From: Nitrospirota bacterium
GTDB lineage: Bacteria > Nitrospirota > Thermodesulfovibrionia > Thermodesulfovibrionales > JdFR-85
DNA: 60,426 nucleotides
Assembly: GCA_015492645.1 (NCBI GenBank)
Contig: WGER01000083.1
Coordinates: forward strand, 1 to 60,426
Reading direction: 5' to 3'
Part shown: positions 48,769 to 49,939 of the stretch, piece by piece
Numbering within the stretch: position 1 is the stretch's first letter
How the letters are laid out: each line of letters begins with the position of its first letter
The notes under the pieces: model-generated
What the model was told of the DNA's origin: nothing
What the model saw: the letters and a program-made list of their open reading frames with translations, nothing else
The model's database searches: none
Translations under genes and position numbers: made by a program

Positions 48769-48881
48769 TGGATTGTAATACCCAGATTTGTTCCATGTTT
48801 TTGTCAAGTCTCACAAAGAGATCTTCTATGCAAATGAAAGTCCTACCAATATCACCCCCTTAAGTGATATAATATGATTGT

Positions 48882-49018
48882 CTCTGCCTGACCTTGCAAC
48901 GTAAAAATGTAGGCGCTGGGCCTAATGTTCCATTCAGGTTCAGGCAGAGGGTGAGGGTGGGAACAACAAATCAGACGGTCTTGAAAGACGATTGCCGTTT
49001 GTGTTCTTTCCTCACCCT
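48882..49018 (-). ncRNA. candidate bridge RNA of the IS110-family element
   Basis: Read on the minus strand, two consecutive structures share one plan of outer stem, internal loop and apical hairpin. The first (49018-48950) pairs AGGGTGAGG with CCTCACCC and GAACA/CAAA with TTTG/TGTTC. It then opens an internal loop with sides CGGCAATC and CGTCTGA, and closes with GTCT-TTCA-AGAC. The second (48949-48882) pairs CTCTGCCTGAACC with GGTCAGGCAGAG. It opens a loop with sides TGAATGGAACAT and CATTTTTACGTTGCAA, and closes with TAGGC-ccagc-GCCTA. Bridge RNAs of IS110/IS1111 recombinases have this two-loop form. The role is inferred from structure and position only; no expression data. Confidence 0.45.
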
Positions 49019-49060
49019 TACTCTTCCTATTATACTTTCCCTAATAGAGAAACCATAAGA

Positions 49061-49595
49061 CTATGATATACGATGCTCCATCACTACTGATATCGCTGCC
49101 CTGCCCTTGTTCGTAAATATGTCACTGTAGTCTTCTAACTCCATCCCAAGCCCATACCTGCCTATCATCGCATGTATCCTGTTCTTATCGCTGTGCAATG
49201 CCTCCTTAGTGCCTCCTCGCCCTCAGTAGTTCCCTCTTGTCCCTTATCTCACGAGGCGGTATCCATACCTCCGGTAATGTCCCTGCCCTCTGCAGTCGGT
49301 TCAACCCCTTTGCGTCCAGTTTGTCCGTCTTGTGCACTGCACCCATCATCAGTTCTGCCTTACCAGGGTCCACTAAGTGTGGCACCATCCCTGCCTCCTC
49401 TATCTCATCCACTATCCAATACCAGTTCGCACTTGCCTCCACCGCTACATTACTGCCCTCAGGCCATCTGCTCAAAAACTCCCTTATGCTGCCACGGTTG
49501 TGCTCTATCCGACCTTCTTCCACTGTCCTGCCTCCCCTATCCTGCACCTCTACCCAGGTATACCTCTTGTGCGAATCAAATCCTATGATGTACAT
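49061..49595 (-). pseudogene. IS110-family transposase, frameshifted and truncated
   Basis: The intact N-terminal part (129 residues, 49595-49206) is the RuvC-like DEDD domain: [20 protein letters not shown] with the first Asp, [12 protein letters not shown] with the Glu, and the [13 protein letters not shown] aspartates. A frameshift ends it at RARRH. In another frame the sequence resumes as ALHSDKNRIHAMIGRYGLGM and ELEDYSDIFTNKGRAA, matching the next part of IS110 transposases, until a stop at 49061-49063. The C-terminal Transposase_20 domain with the catalytic serine is missing (roughly half of a ~340-residue protein). AAAGGAGG precedes the start. Confidence 0.88.
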
Positions 49596-49596
49596 T

Positions 49597-49654
49597 GCGT
49601 GCCTCCTTTCTTTTTGGTTTTTCTATCCTCTAACTATTTTATCTGGAGGCACGC
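49597..49654 (-). promoter_or_regulatory. inverted repeat masking the transposase ribosome-binding site
   Basis: GCGTGCCTCC (49597-49606) and GGAGGCACGC (49645-49654) are perfect 10-base inverted repeats. In minus-strand RNA that enters from outside, the upstream copy can pair with the copy carrying the GGAGG ribosome-binding site one base from the ATG. This would block translation on read-through transcripts, a known strategy of insertion sequences. Confidence 0.6.
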
Positions 49655-49669
49655 CTTTTCATATAATCA

Positions 49670-49939
49670 AATTCGGGGCTACAGCACATACTTGCAAAGA
49701 GATATAAAACCCCTGTAAAGGGCTATATTGACACTATTGCCAAGGCCAAGGCCAGAGGTATTATTGATGAAGCCCTATATGTCCGTCTCAAACCATTTTT
49801 TGATTTCAGGAATGCCCTGATCCACAGGTATTGGGAGATTAATGATGAAGTCCTCTTAAAGAATACCCGAGAGGGGTACAAGGACTTTCTGAGATTTGTA
49901 GAAAATATCAAAAAGAGTTTTCTGTGCCCCGAATTATGA
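49670..49939 (+). pseudogene. 5'-truncated HepT (DUF86, HEPN-fold) toxin gene
   Basis: An open frame with no start codon of its own reads LQHILAKRYKTPVKGYIDTI, then ALYVRLKPFFDFRNALIHRY and WEINDEVLLKNTREGYKDF, ending at TGA 49937-49939. RNALIHRY is the Rx4HxY catalytic motif of HepT-type HEPN proteins, which act with MntA-type nucleotidyltransferase antitoxins. About 50 N-terminal residues are missing, and the frame meets a TAA at the IS edge. No MntA partner is visible on either side. It was probably disrupted by the IS110 element. Confidence 0.75.

What the first reader, a model, noticed from the sequence alone, without database searches (positions are those of the whole stretch)
48882..49018. 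Two-loop structured RNA beside an IS110-type transposase: candidate bridge RNA
Seen: two adjacent minus-strand structures, each with a long outer stem, an asymmetric internal loop and an apical hairpin (GTCT-TTCA-AGAC and TAGGC-ccagc-GCCTA). They lie directly 3' of a DEDD transposase remnant. Known: IS110-family recombinases use a bridge RNA with target- and donor-binding internal loops, encoded in a noncoding end of the element. Inferred: this is such an RNA, and its position on the 3' side would fit the IS1111-like arrangement. It survives although the transposase is dead, so it could be a fossil or be used in trans by an intact copy elsewhere.
Basis: partly seen in the sequence, partly recalled or inferred. 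Interest (0 to 1): 0.7.

Follow-up and report, generated by a model that had tools for sequence, protein, structure and literature searches.

The report
Transposase-less IS110 with bridge RNA
The two-loop RNA is a genuine bridge RNA (the guide of an IS110-type jumping element), but it belongs to a second, 287-base element that has lost its enzyme and landed inside the transposase gene beside it, so it is most likely a well-preserved relic of a known kind of RNA-guided mobile DNA.

Summary
On the minus strand, 49017-48949 and 48948-48883 fold into two internal-loop hairpins, with a 5' stem-loop at 49058-49030 (z -4.9). The sequence is a bridge RNA: a covariance model from the window and one homologue found four near-identical intact IS110-group elements (1,261 bp) in a related genome (E 1e-7). 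There the RNA lies directly 5' of an IS110 recombinase, its target-loop guides match the insertion sites and its donor-loop guides match the element ends. Those ends also flank the window RNA, once each in 60 kb: the left end (CATCGTATAT) at 49075 and the right end (CTTGACA..GGAACA, closing at 48789). They delimit a 287-bp IS110 element with no recombinase. The adjacent transposase remnant belongs to an IS1111-group subfamily whose own RNA is different and absent here; the small element sits inside that remnant. So this is an IS110-type (left-end) bridge RNA, not an IS1111-type 3' one. No second copy of the RNA, and no recombinase of its subgroup, was found in the genome. Most likely it is a relic of an internally deleted IS110. 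Mobilisation in trans is possible but unproven.

The parts
48789..49075 (-). Recombinase-less IS110-group element, 287 nt counted with a CA core at each end
   Evidence: LE CATCGTATAT and RE CTTGACA..GGAACA each occur once in the window, on the minus strand, either side of the RNA. Ends defined from four insertions of the intact relative
49065..49075 (-). Left end (LE): CA core plus TCGTATATC; TATATC at 49070-49065 is the -10 half of the circle-junction promoter
   Evidence: 10/10 identity to the LE of the intact element
49030..49058 (-). 5' stem-loop of the bridge RNA
   Evidence: Fold; an RNA from about 49058 to 48882 would be about 177 nt, the length reported for IS621 (PMC11208160)
48949..49017 (-). 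Target-binding loop hairpin; left guide ..CGGCA at 48997-48993, right guide ..GATTTG at 48972-48967
   Evidence: Fold, homology and compensatory changes, guide test
48883..48948 (-). Donor-binding loop hairpin; left donor guide ATGGAACA at 48933-48926, right donor guide ACGTTG at 48902-48897
   Evidence: Fold, homology, 8-nt identity of the left donor guide with the element's right end
48789..48808 (-). Right end (RE): C-TTGACA-AAAACATGGAA-CA; TTGACA at 48807-48802 is the -35 half of the junction promoter
   Evidence: Pattern shared with right ends in G094, G157 and G087 and with no other site in 164 loci
48810..48881 (-). Spacer where the recombinase gene should be; possible remnant of its ribosome-binding site and first codons (LVGLSFA*), rest deleted
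   Evidence: Translation and comparison; inference only
49076..49595 (-). Host of the insertion: IS1111-group DEDD transposase remnant, frameshifted near 49200, interrupted at 49075; frame would run on as ..VVMEQ across the empty site
   Evidence: PF01548, 53-63% identity to L023/L047/L048/L049, empty-site reading
49596..49668 (-). Left end of that IS1111-group element: terminal extension GATTATA, subterminal repeat TGAAAAGGCG (49661-49652), hairpin GGCGTGCCTCC..GGAGGCACGC before the ATG
   Evidence: Conserved in L023, L047, L048, L049

Best explanation
The structure is the bridge RNA of an IS110-group element, encoded on the minus strand in the element's left end. In a live element (known biology), excision joins the right and left ends, which makes a promoter (here TTGACA-N16-TATATC) that transcribes an RNA of about 177 nt. 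Its first internal loop pairs with the genomic target, its second with the joined ends, and a DEDD recombinase exchanges strands at a CA core. The window copy retains both ends, the 5' stem-loop and both loops, but has lost about 1 kb including the recombinase. It inserted with a CA core into the transposase gene of a different, IS1111-group element already present between tsaD and gspD. Shown here: the bridge-RNA identity by homology, the guide/target/donor matches in intact relatives, both ends in the window, the missing gene, and a separate neighbouring element. Inferred: that the deletion explains the missing gene, that the copy is now inactive, and that it once moved by the standard pathway.
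For: (1) Homology: blastn to L046, E 5.8e-8. Model R1, built only from the window and L046, hits four loci of G094 at per-genome E 1.7e-7 to 4.8e-7. (2) Those four loci are 1,261-bp elements with the RNA 5' of a full-length IS110 recombinase: PF01548 E 7e-24, PF02371 E 5e-22, NCBIfam 'IS110 family RNA-guided transposase' E 3e-58. (3) In G094 the guides match, core included: right target guide 8, 8, 8 and 11 nt, left target guide 6, 4, 4 and 5 nt, left donor guide 6 nt, right donor guide 6 nt. (4) In the window LE CATCGTATAT and RE CTTGACA-N-GGAACA each occur once (0.02 and 0.04 expected), flanking the RNA in the right order and strand. The RE pattern occurs in 164 loci only at right ends of this group. 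(5) The window left donor guide ATGGAACA equals the element's own right end over 8 nt; only 2 of 4,346 CA sites match as well. One base varies together in guide and end between window (AT-GG) and G094 (AC-GG). (6) The right target guide matches the right flank over 6 nt (0.9% of CA sites). (7) Compensatory stem changes. (8) The neighbouring transposase is another subfamily: no significant BLASTP match (best E 0.43), and relatives carry IS1111-type subterminal repeats and a different 3' RNA absent from the window.
Against: The left target guide does not match the left flank beyond chance. The right donor guide has a mismatch next to the core (7/9; 1.6% of CA sites do as well). Only one intact relative set (four copies of one element) gives the ends, so the window's exact ends rest on a 10-nt and an about 20-nt match. 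No transcription data. The second homologue, L046, has no identifiable ends.
Confidence: 0.88

Rival explanations
1. One reading: the hairpins are the 3' (right-end) bridge RNA of the adjacent transposase remnant, an IS1111-like arrangement.
For: Same strand, directly 3' of the remnant; the remnant's subfamily is indeed IS1111-like with a right-end RNA.
Against: That subfamily's right-end RNA (hairpin over the stop codon, then CATGCCGCTAKGACGGCG) is absent from the window. The window RNA instead matches an IS110-group left-end RNA and is bracketed by that group's own ends.
Confidence: 0.04
2. A non-autonomous, trans-mobilised mini-IS110 (bridge-RNA MITE): both ends plus the bridge RNA travel together using a recombinase supplied by another element, with the deletion predating the jump to this site.
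For: Everything needed in cis in the published IS621 assay, RE-LE donor plus bridge RNA, is present in 287 bp (the IS621 RE-LE is 298 bp; PMC11208160). ISEc11 with its central part replaced moved when transposase and non-coding region were supplied in trans (PMC11187229). A second copy of the RNA without a transposase occurs in another family (L046).
Against: Single copy in its genome; no recombinase of this subgroup detected there; L046 shows no identifiable ends. A deletion after insertion explains the same facts.
Confidence: 0.25
3. A host non-coding RNA (for example a gspD leader or 6S-like RNA) unrelated to mobile DNA.
For: Lies upstream of gspD on the same strand; plus-strand folding is also strong and a TATAAT-like box sits at its plus-strand start.
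Against: Non-syntenic, between unrelated genes in L046; inside mobile elements in G094; 6S RNA lies elsewhere in the genome; no Rfam match.
Confidence: 0.02

Closest known systems
IS621 and IS110-group bridge RNAs (Durrant et al. 2024, PMC11208160)
   Same: 5' stem-loop, target-binding loop and donor-binding loop in that order; RNA in the left end; core shared by target and donor; junction promoter across the joined ends; similar length (about 177 nt)
   Different: CA rather than CT core; left target guide short and right target guide long in the G094 relative; no recombinase in the window copy
seekRNAs of IS1111/IS110 elements (Siddiquee et al. 2024, PMC11187229)
   Same: Same class of guide RNA; upstream non-coding region in the IS110 type
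   Different: The IS1111 type has the RNA downstream and long subterminal repeats, as in the neighbouring remnant's relatives, not in this element
Bacterial MITEs (internally deleted, transposase-less insertion sequences)
   Same: Both ends retained, gene lost, about 0.3 kb
   Different: Single copy, no terminal inverted repeats needed, carries its own guide RNA

Membership tests
IS110-group bridge RNA | Homologous RNA lies in the left end, 5' of a DEDD/Ser recombinase | tested here: met
   Four G094 elements, RNA immediately 5' of a PF01548+PF02371 protein
IS110-group bridge RNA | 5' stem-loop plus two internal-loop hairpins | tested here: met
   compensatory changes. In G094 the two loop hairpins fold when taken alone, but the 5' stem-loop is not clear
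IS110-group bridge RNA | Donor-loop guides match the element's own ends | tested here: met
   G094 6+6 nt. Window left donor guide 8 nt; right donor guide 7/9 with a mismatch beside the core
IS110-group bridge RNA | Target-loop guides match the insertion site | tested here: inconclusive
   G094: met in all four copies. Window: right guide 6 nt, 0.9% by chance; left guide not above chance
IS110-group bridge RNA | Promoter formed at the joined ends | tested here: met
   TTGACA-N16-TATATC in the window and TTGACA-N18-TATATT in G094 by sequence; activity not tested
IS110-group bridge RNA | Binds its recombinase and directs recombination | not testable with these tools
   No experiment possible
Complete IS110 element | Intact recombinase gene between the ends | tested here: not met
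   Only about 72 nt between RNA and right end
IS1111-group right-end bridge RNA of the adjacent remnant | Same sequence/structure as the right-end RNA of that subfamily | tested here: not met
   Subfamily motif CATGCCGCTANGACGGCGAAGA absent from the window; different hairpins
MITE family | Multiple similar short copies in a genome | tested here: not met
   One copy in G000 by DNA and covariance-model search

The most novel reading that the evidence does not exclude
A non-autonomous mini-IS110: a 287-bp mobile unit consisting only of two ends and a bridge RNA, carrying its own target programme and moved by a recombinase supplied in trans.
Probability: 0.22. Interest if true: 0.6.

Novelty: new member of a known kind. 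Interest (0 to 1): 0.4.

Why it matters
It shows that bridge RNAs can be recognised without their recombinase and can be checked by matching loops to ends and flanks. If short recombinase-less IS110 copies with intact guides are common, genomes may hold a reservoir of guide RNAs and donor ends that a newly arrived recombinase could use. It also warns that a guide RNA next to a transposase need not belong to it: here two different members of the superfamily are nested.

Tried and rejected
Rfam at gathering and at E<=10: nothing relevant. 6S RNA: found elsewhere in the genome. Ownership by the adjacent transposase: rejected. I first read the conserved GTGATATAAT on the plus strand as a promoter and modelled the plus strand; the G094 elements showed that the minus strand is the sense strand. 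Weak model hits L127-L131 (E 0.02-0.09 per genome) align only in part or poorly and are treated as chance. No copies in plasmids or phages; no relatives of either transposase in viral contigs. L046 ends could not be identified. No gspD was found beside tsaD in the relatives examined (short flanks), so no empty orthologous site was available. R1 on IS110 loci of more distant recombinases: no hits.

Full report
Observation. They fold far better than shuffled sequence (z -4.2, z -4.89 with the 5' stem-loop at 49058-49030). Rfam has nothing for them. The adjacent DEDD fragment is real but lacks its C-terminal domain and carries a frameshift.

The adjacent transposase. Its nearest relatives (53-63% identity) are L023, L047, L048 and L049. 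L049 and L023 show the anatomy of this subfamily: a short left end with a subterminal repeat (TGAAAGCGC..), the matching inverted repeat in a long right end (GCGCTTTCA), and a structured RNA starting over the stop codon and followed by CATGCCGCTAKGACGGCG. In L023 the loop of that RNA contains GAGGAATGATT, which is also the sequence across the left junction. This is the IS1111 type of organisation, with the RNA in the right end. None of that right-end RNA is in the window. The window hairpins are therefore not this element's RNA.

Homologues of the hairpins. DNA search of 149 relatives gave one true homologue, L046, about 64% identical over the whole two-hairpin region (E 5.8e-8), in an intergenic region without any transposase. 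A covariance model from the window and L046, run over 230 genomes of the class, found four places in one single-contig genome (G094) at per-genome E 1.7e-7 to 4.8e-7. They are four nearly identical 1,261-bp elements, two of them in a duplicated stretch. Each carries the RNA 5' of a 330-residue recombinase with both IS110 Pfam domains and an NCBIfam match named 'IS110 family RNA-guided transposase'.

Proof that it is a bridge RNA. The published definition (PMC11208160) says that the left guides pair with the bottom strand, so they read as the top strand up to the core, and that the right guides pair with the top strand, so they read as the reverse complement of core plus right side. In G094 the core is CA. 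The right target guide pairs with 8, 8, 8 and 11 nt of the four right targets, core included; the left target guide matches 6, 4, 4 and 5 nt; the left donor guide matches the right end over 6 nt and the right donor guide the left end over 6 nt. The joined ends give TTGACA-N18-TATATT, as expected from the reported junction promoter (PMC11208160). Stem changes between window and G094 include compensatory pairs (U-A/A-U and A-U/G-C in the target hairpin, G-C/U-A in the donor hairpin, U-A/C-G and C-G/U-A in its apical stem).

The window element. The G094 left end CATCGTATAT occurs once in the window, at 49075-49066 minus, 59 nt before the target hairpin. The right-end pattern CTTGACA-N-GGAACA occurs once, at 48808-48789 minus. 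Across 164 fetched loci the latter pattern is found only at right ends of this IS110 group: window, four G094 copies, G157 and G087. The window thus holds both ends, a junction promoter (TTGACA-N16-TATATC), the 5' stem-loop and both loops within 287 nt, and no recombinase. The spacer of about 72 nt may preserve a ribosome-binding site and a few first codons (inference). The left donor guide ATGGAACA is identical over 8 nt to the element's right end; of 4,346 CA dinucleotides on the same strand only two match as well. The right target guide matches the right flank over 6 nt (0.9% of CA sites). The right donor guide matches 7 of 9 (1.6%), with a mismatch beside the core. The left target guide is not above chance. 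Joining the flanks across CA keeps the transposase remnant open for about 25 further codons and gives ..VVMEQ, which aligns with ..GRMEQ of L049, though similarity ends there; this fits an insertion into that gene.

Activity. The genome shows no second copy of the RNA and no recombinase of this subgroup at E 1e-5. Repeated IS copies can be lost from draft assemblies (91 contigs), so absence is not certain. The simplest reading is an IS110 relic that lost its recombinase by internal deletion. A recombinase-less unit moved in trans is possible: RE-LE plus bridge RNA is sufficient in cis in published assays with the recombinase on another plasmid (PMC11208160), and replaced-centre elements move in trans (PMC11187229). 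I found no report of such natural elements in the open-access papers searched, which do not cover most subscription journals.

Verdict. The locus is a nested pair of decayed elements of the IS110/IS1111 superfamily, the inner one a recombinase-less IS110 with a well-preserved bridge RNA.

Noticed in passing
49670-49937 (+): Fragment of a HepT-like (HEPN) ribonuclease toxin gene (PF01934, E 5.7e-12, RNALIHRY motif) between the transposase remnant and tsaD; the interval is a small graveyard of mobile genes.
   Followed up: partly
L022 (G000 C1 near 94515): A second decayed copy of the IS1111-group element in the same genome, with the same left flank GAATTT before GATTATAT as the window copy, so both hit the same target motif.
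   Followed up: partly
L023 1418-2740 and L049 2970-4160: IS1111-group elements (L023 transposase frameshifted) with a right-end RNA that overlaps the transposase stop codon; in L023 its loop repeats the insertion-site sequence.
   Followed up: partly
L046 1517-1646: Solo homologue of the bridge RNA with no transposase and no recognisable ends, between a rhodanese-like gene and a UDP-glucose dehydrogenase gene; its genome holds a decayed recombinase of the same subgroup on another contig.
   Followed up: partly
L136, right flank of the IS110 fragment in G157: An IS110 right end of this group inserted at CA-ATTTTGGGTAACG, about 0.3 kb upstream of what looks like a 16S rRNA gene; the right flank resembles that of the window element (AATCTGGGTA).
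   Followed up: no
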